DNA of 45,788 bases, from the NCBI GenBank assembly GCA_913062955.1, contig CAJXZP010000026.1:1-45788 (forward strand), given 5' to 3'. This document shows positions 29,842 through 38,567 of the stretch, in pieces. Origin of the DNA: an uncultured Flavobacteriales bacterium (GTDB lineage: Bacteria; Bacteroidota; Bacteroidia; Flavobacteriales_G; Salibacteraceae). Made by a program: the position numbers and the translations under genes. The notes under the pieces were generated by a model. That model had not been told where the DNA came from. It saw nothing but the letters and a program-made list of their open reading frames with translations, and searched no databases. The stretch's first letter is position 1, and each line of letters opens with the position of its first letter.

Positions 29842-30278
29842 ATGTGCGTTGTATGTATTCCTCCTTCATCGAAGGAACTCGATTCAGAATCCACCTATCA
29901 TGTTTCTATGGATGATTTGATCCCTCAATTACAGAGTCAATATCCTAAAGCGGTAAGTTTTGAGCTTCATTATCCAGCTACTGATACTTCCTCAATTTAT
30001 GTGGAGACTAAGTTTAATGAAGGGATTCATTACAATGTGGATTACCTGTTTTTTGATCAATACAGTTTAAAAGAACTGGAAACCGCTTGTATTTACGTGT
30101 AATATAAGGACACTAATTTGCCGATAAAATGATACGAATGAACTAGGATATCCATGTAGGAGCTATCGGTGGTATTTGGGGAAAGGTAATCGCCTTTTTT
30201 TCTAGTCTACTAATGGCAAGTTTACCGTTAACTGGTTTTTTACTGTGGTATGGAAAGAGAAATATAACCAAACACTAA
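29842..30278 (+). pseudogene. Decayed C-terminal part of a PepSY-associated TM-helix protein
   Basis: Three pieces can be joined. Frame A from 29842 reads DSESTYHVSMDDLIPQLQSQ and NVDYLFFDQYSLKELE, then hits TAA at 30100-30102. Frame A continues with YKDTN, and a one-base loss in the T-run at 30117-30119 shifts to frame B, which reads ADKMIRMN, a TAG at 30144-30146, then DIHVGAIGGIWGKVIAF and SLPLTGFLLWYGKR, ending at TAA 30276-30278. This matches what I remember of the family C-terminus (FDQYTLKE, RMNYDIHVGAI, GK, PLTGFLIWWGR). So at least two nonsense changes and one frameshift are present. Sequence upstream of 29842 does not show the N-terminal part. Intact members sit in the inner membrane and are often linked to siderophore or iron uptake. 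Confidence 0.75.
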
Positions 30279-30301
30279 TGGAACACTAATGGAACACTAA
30301 T
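30271..30301. repeat. 11-bp tandem repeat, about 2.8 copies
   Basis: The unit AACACTAATGG occurs at 30271-30281 and 30282-30292, followed by a partial third copy AACACTAAT at 30293-30301. The stop codons of the PepSY pseudogene (plus) and of the GT9-like gene (minus, TAG at 30286-30288) both lie inside it. Slippage here would alter the end of the GT9-like protein. Confidence 0.9.
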
Positions 30302-31167
30302 TTTGATACTTCCAATTTTTCTTTTAAGACTTCCTCCATTTTATTTACTACCGCTCTAGGGTTGAGCATATACAACGCTTGACATCCATTATTACAGTTA
30401 TTCCAATACCCCTTTTCTTTTGAAAAATTACATGCCACACAATCCACTTGTGTTTTAGATACACTTAGAGGATGGACAAATTCATCATGACCAAAAACAA
30501 CATCTCCTATAGTGGGGCCTTGCAGGGCAATTACATGCGTTTTTAAAGTGGCAGCCAAATGAGCACCTCCAGAATCTCCGCTTATTACAATATCAGCCTG
30601 GCGTAACAATGCAGCGAGCTTAAAAAGGTCCAATCCCCAATAATGATACGTATCAAATTGTCGTGCAATTCCACCATCTAAAGTCAATACACAGGTATTG
30701 TAATTCTCTTTAATACGGTTATTTAGATCTATCCAATACAATATCGGCCACGTACGTGTTACACGAGTAGCTTCGGGAAGCATCACTACTTTGGGCGCAT
30801 CTTTATGACACATCTTTTCCCATTCTTGTCTAGCCCAACAATCGGCATCTTCATTATTTCCGTATACGGGTCTTACTGGCTTTAGGTTTTCTAGTCCAAC
30901 GCTACGACTCCAGAAATCAAATCGATTCCGCTTGGTTTTATGTGCTTCTTTAAGTTCATGGTTAAAACCACTTTCTTCCATTTGGGTCCAGTTACCACCA
31001 GAGTTTTCGGTGATATTCTCATCTGGCATACTCAGAATTTGAGTAACCGCTCTATGATTGCGAGGATTAACCTGAATCATTTTGTTTTGTTGCCGCGCAC
31101 TTTCAATAATCCAACATCCTAAAATGACATCTCCTAAACCATTGTTTTGAATATCAATTATTTGCAT
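30286..31167 (-). CDS. Glycosyltransferase family 9-like protein (heptosyltransferase-like)
   Basis: A 293-residue protein with the GT9/ADP-heptose transferase layout: NNGLGDVILGCWIIESAR near the N-terminus (the GD motif), VVMLPEATRVTRTWP in the middle (residues 126-140), then ISGDSGGAHLAATLKTHVIA and LQGPTIGDVV. A C-terminal cluster of four cysteines (CVACNF, then WNNCNNGCQAL) is typical of many GT9 proteins. It should add a sugar to a lipopolysaccharide or other surface glycan. It is the last gene of the DUF2589/GH25 operon, 21 bp after the muramidase gene, and its stop codon lies in a tandem repeat. Functional link to the DUF2589 genes is inference from position. Confidence 0.82.
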   Translation of the reverse strand: MQIIDIQNNGLGDVILGCWIIESARQQNKMIQVNPRNHRAVTQILSMPDENITENSGGNWTQMEESGFNHELKEAHKTKRNRFDFWSRSVGLENLKPVRPVYGNNEDADCWARQEWEKMCHKDAPKVVMLPEATRVTRTWPILYWIDLNNRIKENYNTCVLTLDGGIARQFDTYHYWGLDLFKLAALLRQADIVISGDSGGAHLAATLKTHVIALQGPTIGDVVFGHDEFVHPLSVSKTQVDCVACNFSKEKGYWNNCNNGCQALYMLNPRAVVNKMEEVLKEKLEVSKLVFH

Positions 31168-31188
31168 CGTATTCGTTTTTGAGTTTTA

Positions 31189-32190
31189 TTACTGAATAAG
31201 AAGAGATTTTAGTTCATAGCTGGGAATAAAATTTAAATCAACGTTACCGATAATGCCGTTAATTCGACCCTTGCTAGAAAATTGCCACATGGCTACATCT
31301 GGTGGTTGAGCCGTGGAATCGGTTTCGGTAATACGCATTCCTGGAGGTGGATTTATTGCATATTGAGCCATCCAAAAGGTATAGTCCGAAAAATGTTTTA
31401 GCAGATACGAATCGTAGAAATAGGTGTATGTATAAAGAATCGGTTGTACTTGATAATGGGATTCTATTTTCGCTAAGAAAAGTTTCAAATCTCGAATCAT
31501 TTTGGTTTTTGAAACTCCTGGTTTATTACAGGAGGCACAAGCTAACTCTATGTCAATAACAGGCCGTAAATTTCCGCTCGATAAGGAAACCGTGTGAATT
31601 AAATTTTCTGCTTGAGCATCGGGTGTAGCTTGGTATTCGTAAAAATGATAAATGCCTACAATAAATTTTGTTTTCGCTTGTTTCCAATTGTATTCAAAAT
31701 ATGGGTCCACAATCGAGTCACCCTGAGTCGCTTTCATGATGACAACTTGTAGTGGGTGAGGGGCTGTATCTAGTTTTACATCATCCCAGTTTATTTTGGA
31801 TTGCCAACGAGAAACATCTATGCCATATATTGCAGCCATGTTTCCGGTAGTGCTATCTTTTAATTTTACGGAATAATGGGCTAAATGCTTTTGAAAGTTA
31901 ACGGTATCCATTAAACTATCGGTAGGATACGAATGACCCAAATAATAGCTAGAAACCGGAATAAATGGAGCTACTATTGAATCGGTTACTTCGATATTTT
32001 CAGGAAACACCTTATCCCATTGAGACCTGACAGAAACCCAGTTTCCACCTAGCATAAAAAAAGAATGGATCCCAATTACCACTAGGTTTAAGGTTACCGC
32101 AACAATAACCCACCTTTTAATTTTGTGAATTTGAATGGTCGATTTCTTCCTTTTTTTTTGAGGGGTGAATTTTATGTTTAAGCTGCTCAC
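31189..32190 (-). CDS. Membrane-anchored GH25 muramidase (lysozyme)
   Basis: A 333-residue protein with a basic N-terminal tail, one transmembrane helix (about residues 27-48), a ~70-residue linker and a GH25 domain (residues ~120-333). Catalytic-type residues are Asp125 in YGIDVSRWQ, and Asp213 and Glu215 in VIDIELACASC. KATQGDSIVDPYF and IVGIYHFYEY are further GH25 landmarks. GH25 enzymes cleave the MurNAc-GlcNAc bond in peptidoglycan. The anchor places the domain in the periplasm, attached to the inner membrane. Its start overlaps the preceding small-protein gene by four bases (ATGA), so it is translationally coupled to the DUF2589 operon. Confidence 0.9.
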   Translation of the reverse strand: MSSLNIKFTPQKKRKKSTIQIHKIKRWVIVAVTLNLVVIGIHSFFMLGGNWVSVRSQWDKVFPENIEVTDSIVAPFIPVSSYYLGHSYPTDSLMDTVNFQKHLAHYSVKLKDSTTGNMAAIYGIDVSRWQSKINWDDVKLDTAPHPLQVVIMKATQGDSIVDPYFEYNWKQAKTKFIVGIYHFYEYQATPDAQAENLIHTVSLSSGNLRPVIDIELACASCNKPGVSKTKMIRDLKLFLAKIESHYQVQPILYTYTYFYDSYLLKHFSDYTFWMAQYAINPPPGMRITETDSTAQPPDVAMWQFSSKGRINGIIGNVDLNFIPSYELKSLLIQ

Positions 32191-32522
32191 GGTTTGCGTT
32201 TAATTTTTGAAAGAAGTAGATGTACTGTATTTGAAATACCTAGTTTGATCTCTGTGAAAATGGGATATATAATATTTAACAGATAGCCAAAAACAAGATT
32301 TCCCATGGATTTTGATGCGATGTTATCCGGTATGGGAATAACGACCCGTAATGGTGCTTTTACCAATAAGGGGTTGTAATCCAATGAATAAGGCGCATAT
32401 GGTTTGGTATGTACCCTTTCCGAGTCATAGGGATCATAATCAAACCATTGATCCTTGTTCTTGGCCTCATGTGTTTTTAAGGAATAGGAGGTTTTATTTG
32501 GCGTATATTTTCCGTTGGCCAT
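32187..32522 (-). CDS. Small protein with C-terminal hydrophobic helix, DUF2589 operon
   Basis: A 111-residue protein I do not recognise. The N-terminal half is polar (KNKDQWFDYDPYDSERVH), the middle contains NPLLVKAPLRVVIPIPDNI, and a hydrophobic helix (about residues 73-90, MGNLVFGYLLNIIYPIF) is followed by a basic tail ending KIKRKP. It could insert into or lie on the membrane. The PLLxxxPLRVVIPIP wording resembles the PLLTIIPIN strand of the neighbouring DUF2589 proteins, perhaps a distant relation. It is 7 bp after the third DUF2589-like gene and overlaps the GH25 gene by four bases. Confidence 0.72.
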   Translation of the reverse strand: MANGKYTPNKTSYSLKTHEAKNKDQWFDYDPYDSERVHTKPYAPYSLDYNPLLVKAPLRVVIPIPDNIASKSMGNLVFGYLLNIIYPIFTEIKLGISNTVHLLLSKIKRKP

Positions 32523-32529
32523 AGGGCGG

Positions 32530-33144
32530 TTATGGAATCTGGCTTTTTAAGGCTTTTTCATATCCATCAATTATTTTTTTTAAACCTTCCGAATTTTCTT
32601 GAGGAGTAATGGAGATTTCTAAACTACCCCTAGTCACGTTGTTTTTTCCTTTTCTGGTCTTACTATCAGTAAAGTTTAGTTGAACTTCATCATTCACAAT
32701 CTCTAAGTCAAATTCGGCTGTTAAAACGGCCTTTTCTATTTGCGACATCGATATAGGAGTGAGCGTTAGAAGGGGGACATGGACTTCTATAGATTCCATT
32801 CCGTTTTCAGTTTCTCGAGGATATTCAATGACCACGGTTTTGGGCGACAATGTACCCGGAGTTTGTGCACTTTCCGGAGTAATTGATCCACCACTCAAGG
32901 CATCTTTGGCCTTTTGAAATACATCAGATGCATTTTGTAAGTCCTCTTGGGTTACGGCACCCTTTTTAGTTGAAATAGAATGAGAAATTTTTAAGGCATC
33001 ATCTAAAGTGTTTTGTAAATCTTCTTTATTGCCAGTGTCAATAAAATACTTATCTAACATGGCCAAGTTCTGATCCATTAATTGGTCGTTAGCTGTTAAA
33101 ATCGCCTGATGAATAGAGGTGACAAATGATTTAAAACTTATCAT
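32530..33144 (-). CDS. DUF2589-like protein, divergent third member
   Basis: A 204-residue soluble protein. The N-terminal ~90 residues are helical (FKSFVTSIHQAILTANDQLM). The C-terminal half keeps the DUF2589 plan: EVHVPLLTLTPISMSQIEKA matches the central PLLTIIPIN strand of the two clear members, AEFDLEIV matches FEMEV, and GLKKIIDGYEKALKSQIP matches the final GVNTIIxxxxxxIQPI helix. It lacks the Gly-x-Asn of the clear members, so it may have a modified role. No membrane helix. It lies between the zinc-ribbon gene (3 bp) and the small hydrophobic protein gene (7 bp). Confidence 0.78.
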   Translation of the reverse strand: MISFKSFVTSIHQAILTANDQLMDQNLAMLDKYFIDTGNKEDLQNTLDDALKISHSISTKKGAVTQEDLQNASDVFQKAKDALSGGSITPESAQTPGTLSPKTVVIEYPRETENGMESIEVHVPLLTLTPISMSQIEKAVLTAEFDLEIVNDEVQLNFTDSKTRKGKNNVTRGSLEISITPQENSEGLKKIIDGYEKALKSQIP

Positions 33145-33147
33145 ATT

Positions 33148-33366
33148 CTAATCTTCTTGGGTGGCACTTTTCATTGCAGATACTTCTTTACGAAGCTCAT
33201 CAAATTCATTTATGGCATGCTCTACCAGAGGTGCGCTTTTTGCCGATAAACCAATGGCTGCACTACAACTTGGACATGAAAATTGGATTCCTGTTAATAA
33301 TAAATTTGAATCGGCCGGTATTTGTGTTTGACATACCGGGCATGGAATTTGAATATTGAATTGCAT
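33148..33366 (-). CDS. Zinc-ribbon mini-protein in the DUF2589 operon
   Basis: A 72-residue protein with two CPxC knuckles: CPVC (residues 9-12) and CPSC (residues 31-34), the classic four-cysteine zinc ribbon. The C-terminal ~30 residues (LVEHAINEFDELRKEVSAMK) form a likely coiled coil. It starts with a one-base TAATG overlap with the upstream DUF2589 gene and ends 3 bp before the next one. It is probably a cytoplasmic adaptor for its operon partners; no nucleic-acid-binding evidence beyond the zinc ribbon. Confidence 0.82.
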   Translation of the reverse strand: MQFNIQIPCPVCQTQIPADSNLLLTGIQFSCPSCSAAIGLSAKSAPLVEHAINEFDELRKEVSAMKSATQED

Positions 33367-34004
33367 TAGGAATTATTTATTGGATTGGATTTTTTATTAG
33401 AATCTAACTGAATCGGTTGAATGGATTTTTGATATAAATCAATAATAGTATTCACGCCTACGGGAAGAGGGAGTGGAGATACATTTACGAGCACTTTCAA
33501 GGAGGAACTATTTTGTCTACGATATGGAGAGGTGGCGGAGGTATCTTCACGCGAGTCGTAACTTATTTTTCCTTTTAATTGGGTGTTATTTGTAGGTTGA
33601 CCAAATGAGTTGGTGGAGTTTTTACAAGTGGAGGTGTTCCGATTAATCTGTTCATGGATCTCCATTTCAAACTGTACATTCACTTGATCTACCGCTAAGG
33701 AGTTTAATGGGATTATGGTAAGAATAGGTAGATTGAACGTAGTTTCTATGGTTTTCATAACAGGCTTTCCATGTGCATCTGTGGTGTCCTCCAGCACGTT
33801 TTGAATCAATACCATTTCAATCATTAGGGGTTCAAATCGCCCATTTACTTCGTTAAATCCTGTATCCATCATAAAAGTGGTTTGTTCTCGTTGCATCATT
33901 GAATTGGCATGAGCAGCAGCCACCAATGGGGCACTAATTATATTTTCAATCGCATGTGAATTAGATTTACCGGGTTTAAAAGAACGTATTTTATTGTGAA
34001 ACAT
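33366..34004 (-). CDS. DUF2589 family protein, second member
   Basis: I choose the ATG at 34004 because the upstream in-frame ATG at 34046 would add 14 hydrophobic residues (MNFSPFFSIIFQPT) not seen in its paralogue. The 212-residue product keeps the plan of the first DUF2589 gene: ENIISAPLVAAAHANSMMQ near the start, FMMDTGFNEVNG, FEPLMIEMVLIQN, then TFNLPILTIIPLNSLAVDQV followed by VQFEMEI, and a C-terminal PLPVGVNTIIDLYQKSIQPI. No signal peptide or membrane helix. Its stop codon overlaps the start of the zinc-ribbon gene by one base (TAATG), suggesting translational coupling. The molecular role of DUF2589 is unknown to me. Confidence 0.83.
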   Translation of the reverse strand: MFHNKIRSFKPGKSNSHAIENIISAPLVAAAHANSMMQREQTTFMMDTGFNEVNGRFEPLMIEMVLIQNVLEDTTDAHGKPVMKTIETTFNLPILTIIPLNSLAVDQVNVQFEMEIHEQINRNTSTCKNSTNSFGQPTNNTQLKGKISYDSREDTSATSPYRRQNSSSLKVLVNVSPLPLPVGVNTIIDLYQKSIQPIQLDSNKKSNPINNS

Positions 34005-34063
34005 AGTTGGTTGGAATATTATTGAAAAAAATGGACTGAAATTCATCAGCCCATTTAGAATGT

Positions 34064-34750
34064 TTAGGATACCTCTATCGGTTGAATTGCATTGGTAAAT
34101 GCCTCAATAATGGTATTTACCCCTTTAGGTATGGGTAACTGTCCGGCATGTACGTTAACCGTGTACTTGGCCGAGTTACTTTTTTGATAATGGGTACTGT
34201 GTGTTTCAGAATCCTTATGATCATAACTCGCACTTCCTTTTATCGTTGCCGAAAAAGGGCCCCAACCCATCTTAGCTTCAAAGCTGGCTTGTCCTGCCGT
34301 GCTATTAGAAATGGTTTTGTTTGTGTCTTCCGAGAAACTAGATTTCACTTCCATTTCAAACGTAATATCTACGTTATCTACACCCAAAGAGTTTATTGGG
34401 ATGATGGTTAATAAAGGAAGGTTAAACTGAGTCGTTACATTATTAAAAGTAACATTGTTTCCAGAACCGGAACCCGATCCTTGAGCTCCGCCCGATTGGA
34501 CGATTACAGGTCTTGACAAAGACATTTCAATCATTATTGGAGAATAGCTCACACTAGCAGTACCCGACCCTGTTCCAGAACCTGGTGAAGCCGTCACTTT
34601 GTTAAAGCATGTGTCCAATAAAAAACTTGTCTGTGTCAAAGCCATTGAAGCATTACCCTTAGCCGCTGCATTTAACGGTGCTCCTATTAAGGAGTCCATC
34701 GGTAACCCAGAAAATTGCTGGGCCATCGATACTAAATCTCTGTCTGCCAT
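34064..34750 (-). CDS. DUF2589 family protein, first member of operon
   Basis: A 228-residue soluble protein. An N-terminal helical segment (LPMDSLIGAPLNAAAKGNAS) is followed by a Gly/Ser-rich insert (residues ~52-90), the core strands NLPLLTIIPINSLGVDNVDI and TFEMEV, and the C-terminal PIPKGVNTIIEAFTNAIQPI. This wording is characteristic of DUF2589, a bacterial family with no function known to me. It opens a seven-gene minus-strand operon (DUF2589, DUF2589, zinc ribbon, DUF2589-like, small hydrophobic protein, GH25, GT9). An intact -7 element and a 21-bp dyad lie just upstream, so this gene sets the expression of the whole unit. Confidence 0.85.
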   Translation of the reverse strand: MADRDLVSMAQQFSGLPMDSLIGAPLNAAAKGNASMALTQTSFLLDTCFNKVTASPGSGTGSGTASVSYSPIMIEMSLSRPVIVQSGGAQGSGSGSGNNVTFNNVTTQFNLPLLTIIPINSLGVDNVDITFEMEVKSSFSEDTNKTISNSTAGQASFEAKMGWGPFSATIKGSASYDHKDSETHSTHYQKSNSAKYTVNVHAGQLPIPKGVNTIIEAFTNAIQPIEVS

Positions 34751-34781: not shown

Positions 34782-34861
34782 AGTAGGTTTCGCGAATCTA
34801 CTGCTCAAATCTATTTATTCTTACTCCTGAAATAACACGTATAAATACCTGTTTAACAGGT
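34782..34861 (-). promoter_or_regulatory. Promoter and operator region of the DUF2589 operon
   Basis: On the minus strand TAGATTTG (34806-34813) is an exact TAnnTTTG -7 element, 55 bp before the ATG. Immediately downstream lies a 21-bp dyad (34782-34802) centred on the palindrome TTCGCGAA with AGTAG/CTACT arms. Upstream, ACCTGTTTAACAGGT (34847-34861) is a perfect palindrome with a one-base centre. TAAATACCTG at 34842-34851 recurs at 34875-34884. The -33 box is weak. Confidence 0.5.
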
Positions 34862-37582: not shown

Positions 37583-38110
37583 GTGCAACTTCTCAGGAAA
37601 TACAAGGCAGTCTGGCTATTTCTACTTCGGTTTTTTGGAGTATATCTACTTGGCGTTTTGGTGTATAACACTTATTTGGATCAATTCGGCTCCCAATTGG
37701 ATGACATAACCCGAAGGGTTACCGAACAAGTGGCCGTCATGTTCTCTTGGACCTTACCCGAAATTAGTTGTGTATATTCGGAGGTGAATCCAATGTCCGA
37801 GATTAGGTATTTTGATTCCATATTATTACTTTTAATAGAAGGGTGTAATGCGGTGAGTGTGATGATTCTATTTATGTCCTTTTTATTCGCATTTAAAGGG
37901 AGTTTTAAAAATTATCTATGGTTTGTCCCTCTAGGATTGGTGGTGCTCTATGTGTCTAACTTACTTCGGATTTACCTTATTGGGATGATCCGCTTATATT
38001 TTCCAGATTACACAAACATGGCGCATGACTTTATTTTTCCTGGAGTAATATATGGAACCACATTTTTGCTTTGGATGATTTGGGTCAAGTTTTTAGTTAA
38101 AAAAGATTAG
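37583..38110 (+). CDS. xrtF: Exosortase family protein XrtF
   Basis: A 175-residue polytopic membrane protein with a GTG start; no in-frame ATG comes before residue 53. It has the exosortase catalytic set: Cys88 in IEGCNAVSV, Arg129 in SNLLRIYLIG and His148 in AHDFIFPG. Exosortases are thought to cleave and process surface proteins with PEP-CTERM-like tails; XrtF is the flavobacterial form. The next gene encodes the typical XrtF-associated protein, and pdxH and a GT2 gene follow in the same tight operon. No target protein with a recognisable sorting tail was seen in the window. Confidence 0.92.
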   Translation: MQLLRKYKAVWLFLLRFFGVYLLGVLVYNTYLDQFGSQLDDITRRVTEQVAVMFSWTLPEISCVYSEVNPMSEIRYFDSILLLLIEGCNAVSVMILFMSFLFAFKGSFKNYLWFVPLGLVVLYVSNLLRIYLIGMIRLYFPDYTNMAHDFIFPGVIYGTTFLLWMIWVKFLVKKD

Positions 38111-38111
38111 G

Positions 38112-38567
38112 ATGAGTACGAGAGAAATCATATTTGCGGTGTTCGGAGTCCTTGGCTTAATGGCCGTTCGGTTTTTGGCTCCAATGGTATTTTATGATCC
38201 ACTTATTGCTTTTTTTCACCAAGTGGATTATCAGATAAACGTATTACCCGAAATCCAATATTTCACATTGTTTATTTCTCTTCTGATTCGATTTGTAGTG
38301 AATAGTGTGTTATCACTTGTCCTCATCAAATCTTTATTTAAAAGAAGCGAAATTTTAGAAGTTACGGCTGTTTTATTTGGGATTACGTTTTTGATATTGA
38401 CCCCCATCTTGTTTTATTTGATATGGGACGGTTCACCAAATAACTATCAGTTTCTGTTTTATGTACGTAGAATATTAATACATCCGATACTCACATTGGT
38501 TCTAATTCCTGCATATCTGTATCATCAAAATAGATCAAAGTCGAAGTCTAAAAAAGAAATGGAATGA
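38112..38567 (+). CDS. Exosortase F system-associated membrane protein
   Basis: A 151-residue protein with about four hydrophobic segments, including ALIRFVVNSVLSLV-like and LTLVLIPAYLYH stretches. The start is two bases after the xrtF stop and its own stop overlaps the pdxH start by four bases (ATGA), so it is co-translated. This partner protein is known from flavobacterial xrtF loci, where it is required to define the family; its activity is unknown. Basic C-terminal tail (NRSKSKSKKEME). Confidence 0.88.
   Translation: MSTREIIFAVFGVLGLMAVRFLAPMVFYDPLIAFFHQVDYQINVLPEIQYFTLFISLLIRFVVNSVLSLVLIKSLFKRSEILEVTAVLFGITFLILTPILFYLIWDGSPNNYQFLFYVRRILIHPILTLVLIPAYLYHQNRSKSKSKKEME

What the first reader, a model, noticed from the sequence alone, without database searches (positions are those of the whole stretch)
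30286..34750. Compact seven-gene operon: three DUF2589-type proteins, a zinc ribbon, a small membrane protein, a GH25 muramidase and a GT9
Seven minus-strand genes are packed with gaps of 3-59 bp and two overlaps. Two are clear DUF2589 proteins and a third shares their core (PLLTIIPIN-like strand, FEMEV-like strand, final GVNTII...IQPI-like helix). A four-cysteine zinc ribbon sits between them, and a small hydrophobic protein is translationally coupled to a membrane-anchored GH25 muramidase. I know of no described function for DUF2589 or for this combination. A paralogue set, an adaptor-like zinc ribbon and a tethered cell-wall enzyme would fit a multi-subunit assembly that acts on the envelope, for example a stress or defence machine or a cell-wall remodelling complex. 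This is inference.
Basis: partly seen in the sequence, partly recalled or inferred. Interest (0 to 1): 0.75.

Follow-up and report, generated by a model that had tools for sequence, protein, structure and literature searches.

The report
DUF2589 gene cluster with tethered muramidase
A four-gene set of unknown function, shared by distant bacteria, has repeatedly acquired wall-cutting enzymes as neighbours, which suggests a little-known protein assembly that has to get through the cell wall.

Summary
The seven genes exist as described. All three paralogues exceed the Pfam DUF2589 cut-off; the 'small hydrophobic protein' is only marginally hydrophobic. The real unit is four genes: A-B-Zn ribbon-D. 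The Zn ribbon lies in all 19 loci examined of this type (Bacteroidota, Acidobacteriota, Pseudomonadota). A and D are each one clade, so the paralogue set is old.

The GH25 link is real but variable: GH25 adjoins the core in six lineages, is the commonest Pfam family among 113 neighbours, and in the window's genus and two other genera forms a clade apart from other Bacteroidota GH25s. Other DUF2589 loci carry different peptidoglycan enzymes (PF11860, CHAP, M15, pesticin-type). GT9 is essentially genus-level.

New here: a stem-loop between A and B in 12 of 16 loci (19% of background gaps), suggesting A is made in excess; and a 54-residue Ser/Thr-rich insertion found only in A.

Best guess (0.4): a cytoplasmic DUF2589 assembly, A its main subunit, whose release or export depends on a dedicated, here membrane-tethered, muramidase. 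It works like an endolysin-assisted release cassette but has no recognisable holin. No structure, fold match or experiment supports the mechanism. No described function was found; one transcriptome paper mentions the domain.

The parts
34064..34750 (-). Gene A: DUF2589 paralogue 1, proposed major subunit; most conserved paralogue
   Evidence: PF11655 E=3.7e-26; 52-63% identical to orthologues outside the genus, including Acidobacteriota and Colwellia; one clade, 100/99
34178..34339 (-). Codons 138-191 of A: 54-residue Ser/Thr-rich insertion with GWGPF core, only in A-type paralogues
   Evidence: Length 54 in 18 of 19 A proteins, 24-38% S/T; lacking in B and D
34029..34056 (-). Stem-loop followed by T-run between A stop and B start (terminator- or attenuator-like)
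   Evidence: Terminator-like scan hit; dinucleotide z -3.4 here, z<=-2.5 in 12 of 16 loci against 19% of background gaps
34806..34813 (-). TAGATTTG, a possible Bacteroidota -7 element upstream of A; weak
   Evidence: Pattern match, no more frequent in the window than chance; no other minus-strand match between 30286 and 34750 except one inside A
33366..34004 (-). Gene B: DUF2589 paralogue 2 (start chosen by orthologues; longest ORF starts at 34046)
   Evidence: PF11655 E=2.3e-20
33148..33366 (-). Gene C: 72-aa four-cysteine zinc-ribbon protein with C-terminal helix
   Evidence: Counterpart found in 19 of 19 type-I loci
32530..33144 (-). Gene D: DUF2589 paralogue 3 with N-terminal helical region
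   Evidence: PF11655 E=2.3e-10; one clade, 100/100; AlphaFold2 pLDDT 75, pTM 0.45
32187..32522 (-). Gene E: 111-aa protein, basic C-terminal helix, coupled to F by a GTGA overlap
   Evidence: Homologues only in the genus; loosely similar small proteins precede GH25 in L020 and L164
31189..32190 (-). Gene F: GH25 muramidase with basic cytosolic tail and N-terminal TM anchor; D and DxE catalytic motifs present
   Evidence: PF01183 E=8.6e-41; PHROG endolysin 3.8e-35; TM segment and motifs; clade 100/99
30286..31167 (-). Gene G: GT9 (heptosyltransferase-like) glycosyltransferase
   Evidence: PF01075 E=9.4e-14; below all NCBIfam heptosyltransferase cut-offs

Best explanation
The core (A, B, zinc ribbon C, D) encodes a cytoplasmic multi-subunit assembly in which A is the main building block and B, D and C are minor or accessory parts. 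The assembly, or a cargo it carries, must leave the cell or cross its wall, and a dedicated peptidoglycan hydrolase opens the way. In this genome that enzyme is F, held in the inner membrane with its catalytic domain in the periplasm and a short basic tail in the cytosol where the assembly (or E) could dock; G would glycosylate a surface or particle component. It would work like an endolysin-assisted release or export cassette built around an undescribed core. Shown: gene content, conservation, enzyme families, GH25 association, predicted A-B stem-loop. Inferred: excess of A, assembly, docking, release.
For: Paralogue set conserved as a set across phyla. A is the most conserved, and a stem-loop separates it from B-C-D in 12 of 16 loci (T-run in about 8), a usual way to make one operon product in excess. 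GH25 within 4 kb in 3 of 6 type-I lineages of the genomes where 0.017 were expected (P=8e-7), then in G724, G1023 and Pedobacter; top family among 113 neighbours. The GH25 of the window genus, G012 and G724 form a clade apart from unlinked GH25s and share the linker motif Y[LA]GHS. Other DUF2589 loci carry other peptidoglycan enzymes without a hydrophobic N-terminus: PF11860, CHAP, M15, pesticin-type, DUF5675, i.e. phage-endolysin-like. A, B, C and D lack TM segments. Rare in phages. Endolysin-dependent release of a large protein complex is known: Yersinia entomophaga Tc (PMC10847048, title and abstract).
Against: No holin-like protein is recognisable. No structure: A modelled badly (pLDDT 48); D gave no PDB fold match and one unnamed viral match of unclear meaning. 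Most type-I loci have no peptidoglycan enzyme beside them. F's TM segment is strongly hydrophobic, so it may stay tethered and trim rather than lyse. Unlinked Bacteroidota GH25s are often also membrane-anchored with basic tails. Excess of A rests on a predicted RNA structure; the 16 loci are not all independent.
Confidence: 0.4

Rival explanations
1. DUF2589 proteins are carriers or adaptors of an effector-delivery system; the neighbouring hydrolases, proteases, nucleases and lipases are cargo used against other cells.
For: Neighbours at DUF2589 loci include subtilase, trypsin, patatin, M91, endonuclease-phosphatase, SLATT and SpvB/TcB-type proteins besides peptidoglycan enzymes; Vibrio plasmid loci carry M91 and TcdA/TcdB-type genes within about 10 kb; many of the wall enzymes lack signals.
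Against: No shared targeting domain or immunity-gene pattern was identified; window F is membrane-anchored in its own cell; contractile sheath genes never lie beside DUF2589 in the hits listed and track it only weakly (4/5 vs 11/55; 8/23 vs 4/18). The neighbour list was chosen by eye, without a random-locus control.
Confidence: 0.25
2. Abortive-infection or defence system: DUF2589 proteins sense infection and trigger a lytic effector (here GH25).
For: Patchy distribution (3-7% of species); interchangeable effectors; SLATT at one locus.
Against: No PADLOC match for the core beyond a chance-level hit on the Zn ribbon (E 0.024); defence models among neighbours are scattered single matches.
Confidence: 0.12
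3. Ordinary cell-wall remodelling or sizing complex: tethered GH25 trims peptidoglycan under control of the cytosolic proteins; GT9 modifies surface glycans.
For: Window F is membrane-anchored and operonic with GT9 in three genomes.
Against: Does not explain distant loci with wall enzymes without a signal, patchy distribution, or absence of GH25 from most loci.
Confidence: 0.12
4. GH25 and GT9 are incidental operon passengers of an unrelated DUF2589 complex.
For: GH25 is missing at 11 of 17 lineages of type-I loci.
Against: Repeated recruitment and far more proximity than chance; dedicated clade.
Confidence: 0.1

Closest known systems
DUF2589, PF11655
   Same: A, B and D are members over the curated cut-off
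   Different: The family has no described function; here it is split into A, B and D types with separate features
Holin/endolysin release (type 10 secretion), e.g. Yersinia entomophaga Tc release (PMC10847048)
   Same: A wall hydrolase of endolysin type paired with a putative large protein assembly
   Different: No holin or spanin recognised; core proteins match no known lysis family
SAR endolysin with pinholin (e.g. phage HP1, PMC7312051)
   Same: Muramidase with an N-terminal TM anchor and periplasmic catalytic domain
   Different: GH25 fold; anchor strongly hydrophobic; no pinholin; chromosomal, not phage
Aerolysin-like beta-pore-forming proteins
   Same: A has a Ser/Thr-rich insertion around an alternating hydrophobic hairpin (resemblance by eye, from memory)
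   Different: No sequence match in the PDB and no usable fold; amphipathicity not above background

Membership tests
DUF2589 (PF11655) | Profile match over curated cut-off | tested here: met
   A 92.7, B 73.9, D 41.5 bits against 23
GH25 muramidase | Full-length domain with Asp and Asp-x-Glu catalytic motifs | tested here: met
   Residues 124-313 cover profile 1-180; GIDVS at 123, DIE at 213
Type 10 (holin/endolysin) secretion | Peptidoglycan hydrolase in the cluster | tested here: met
   GH25
Type 10 (holin/endolysin) secretion | Small membrane-spanning holin in the cluster | tested here: not met
   No TM-strength segment in A-D; E borderline; no PHROG holin match
Type 10 (holin/endolysin) secretion | Enzyme needed for export of a cargo | not testable with these tools
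   Needs a deletion experiment
SAR endolysin | N-terminal signal anchor | tested here: met
   19-residue mean 2.25 at residue 28
SAR endolysin | Anchor can leave the membrane (weakly hydrophobic, Gly/Ala-rich) | tested here: inconclusive
   Hydropathy is high, which argues against, but release was not measured
Contractile injection system cargo or part | Sheath genes at the locus | tested here: not met
   Sheath hits of the genome are on contigs C25 and C31, not C26; none near DUF2589 among the hits listed
Known anti-phage defence system | Match to a PADLOC model | tested here: not met
   No match for six of seven proteins at E<=0.1; C only LmuB at 0.024, chance level
Beta-pore-forming protein | Amphipathic insertion hairpin and homologous fold | tested here: inconclusive
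   Insertion present, but beta-moment not above other proteins; no confident model of A

The most novel reading that the evidence does not exclude
A is a pore-forming or tube-forming protein that acts on the membrane of the cell that makes it: its fixed-length Ser/Thr-rich hairpin inserts into the inner membrane in an oligomer capped or regulated by B, D and the zinc ribbon, and the tethered muramidase opens the wall under the pore. That would be a chromosomal holin substitute, or export channel, unrelated to any known one.
Probability: 0.12. Interest if true: 0.88.

Novelty: new variant of a known kind. Interest (0 to 1): 0.6.

Why it matters
DUF2589 is a widespread family without a described function; only one paper in the open library mentions it, as a transcriptome remark. 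Showing that it comes as a fixed A-B-Zn-D set, with A separated by a stem-loop and with wall-cutting enzymes recruited several times, gives a concrete and testable idea of what these genes do: build something that has to pass the cell wall.

Tried and rejected
Structure route: A model too poor to search; D model has no PDB match and one unnamed viral match with poor superposition. PDB sequence search with the A profile: nothing. Phage origin: one weak hit in 50,697 phage records and four loci in IMG/VR. Contractile injection system: rejected on distance. Defence. Amphipathic-hairpin pore idea: the statistical test did not separate A from background, so it is kept only as the novel case. Promoter motif scans give no more hits than shuffles. 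Reading L022 and L154 (transglycosylase-like) and L150 (YkuD-like) as wall enzymes is by eye; Pfam finds only DUF5675 in L022 and nothing in the others. Surveys of whole genomes outside Bacteroidota were not possible with the tools.

Full report
What is there. The seven minus-strand genes are real and placed as stated. A, B and D are DUF2589 (PF11655) proteins over the curated cut-off, C is a four-cysteine zinc-ribbon protein, E a 111-residue protein, F a GH25 muramidase and G a GT9 glycosyltransferase. F has a strong N-terminal transmembrane segment after a basic tail; E does not reach the hydropathy of a TM helix. The genome has no other DUF2589 gene and a second, unlinked GH25 gene on another contig.

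Which part is the unit. All seven genes recur in the same order in both other genomes of the genus that are held (L018, L019; the zinc ribbon of L019 was found by tblastn). Outside the genus the conserved unit is A-B-C-D: the zinc ribbon is found in all 19 loci of this type, B in 18 and D in 18 (D was not called at L025, where my ORF caller chose the other strand, and B is missing at L032). The loci come from Bacteroidota, Acidobacteriota (L024, L025) and a Colwellia relative (L028). In a tree of 54 paralogues A is one clade (100/99), D one clade (100/100) and B falls into two lineages, so a three-paralogue set predates the spread. Carriage is patchy: 28 of 395 Bacteroidota genomes, 14 of 395 and 13 of 391 in two class samples. 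A second arrangement exists in which one or two DUF2589 genes alternate with other small genes.

The muramidase link. Genomes with DUF2589 carry at most two GH25 genes. Among six type-I lineages in that set, GH25 lies within 4 kb in three (window genus, G012, G396); the expectation is 0.017, Poisson P=8e-7 (the 4-kb limit was chosen by me after seeing the loci). Later loci added G724 and the distant G1023, and Pedobacter has GH25 with a peptidoglycan-binding domain just upstream. In a scan of 113 neighbours of type-I loci GH25 was the most frequent Pfam family, six members. In a GH25 tree, those of the window genus, G012 and G724 form a clade of their own (100/99) apart from unlinked GH25s, while G1023, G396 and Pedobacter branch elsewhere: several recruitments. 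The clade shares the linker motif Y[LA]GHS, and several of it and G1023 share a cytosolic tail of the type FxPxKKGK (loose or absent in L018 and L020). The position of GH25 varies: downstream in the same operon, upstream, or divergent.

Other wall enzymes. DUF2589 loci elsewhere neighbour PF11860 muramidases (L069, L151), CHAP (L087), M15/VanY (L078), a pesticin-type muramidase with a Mor-type activator (L033, Pseudomonas), DUF5675 (L022) and PG_binding_1 proteins (L081, L094). These lack a TM-strength N-terminus. Other enzymes seen are subtilase, trypsin, patatin, endonuclease-phosphatase, M91, SLATT and an SpvB/TcB-type protein. I chose these neighbours by eye and have no random-locus control for them; only GH25 was tested against chance.

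Stem-loop after A. The A-B gap contains a stable stem-loop in 12 of 16 loci (z<=-2.5 against dinucleotide shuffles), compared with 19% of 116 co-directional gaps of similar length in the same loci (Fisher P=1.4e-5; Mann-Whitney P=1.7e-5). A T-run follows the stem in the window, L018, L019, L020, L030, L088, L153 and roughly in L093 (read by eye). The window and its two genus mates are close relatives, so the tests overstate independence somewhat. The simplest reading is partial termination or 3'-end protection that makes A more abundant than B, C and D. A is also the most conserved paralogue (52-63% identity to orthologues outside the genus; B and D are mostly 26-49% and 31-39%, best local alignments).

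The insertion in A. Only A-type proteins carry an insertion of 54 residues (56 in one), 24-38% Ser/Thr, around SFEAKMGWGPFSATIKGSASY. It resembles the insertion hairpins of pore-forming proteins by eye, but its beta-moment is not above that of other proteins, so I make no claim beyond the novel case.

Mechanism. I commit to a cytoplasmic assembly with A as main subunit whose exit needs a wall-cutting partner, confidence 0.4. Shown: genes, conservation, enzyme families, proximity and predicted stem-loop. Inferred: stoichiometry, complex formation, docking of F, export. It resembles holin/endolysin release, which is known to free large complexes (PMC10847048, title and abstract), but the holin criterion is not met, so it is not filed there. 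Rivals are effector delivery (0.25), defence (0.12), wall remodelling (0.12) and incidental linkage (0.1).

GT9 is genus-level, with one remote, below-cut-off GT9 domain at L154 and a GT2 at L164.

Noticed in passing
L033 6808-9326 (Pseudomonas sp. Au-Pse12): Two DUF2589 genes beside a Mor-type transcription activator and a pesticin-type muramidase without signal peptide; the set recurs in several Pseudomonas, and Mor-like small proteins also stand near DUF2589 on two Vibrio plasmids (Vibrio ones by eye).
   Followed up: partly
L097 186-6818 (G148:C30): DUF2589 locus followed by a large SpvB/TcB-type protein (PF03534, PF12256, PF12255).
   Followed up: no
G000:C25:15359-16018 and G000:C31:30842-31111 (L108, L109): The window's genome has two weak contractile-sheath matches, possibly an injection system or prophage tail, away from this locus.
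   Followed up: no
L164 8876-15863 (G1023): Two large proteins (631 aa without Pfam match, and 1690 aa not scanned) with similar basic N-termini downstream of a type-I DUF2589 locus.
   Followed up: no
window 37583-38567: Pair of small membrane proteins that look like exosortase F and its partner (by eye).
   Followed up: no
window 30262-30292: Short tandem repeat (attagtgttcc) across the stop of the GT9 gene.
   Followed up: no
L077 9495-10751, L079, L091: Subtilase-type gene (Pfam S8 in L077) in the same operon as DUF2589 genes in three genomes of one genus.
   Followed up: partly
Archaeoglobus fulgidus AF0414-AF0417 (literature): Only literature mention found: DUF2589-related genes up-regulated on lactate (PMC3949148), so archaea carry them too.
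   Followed up: no
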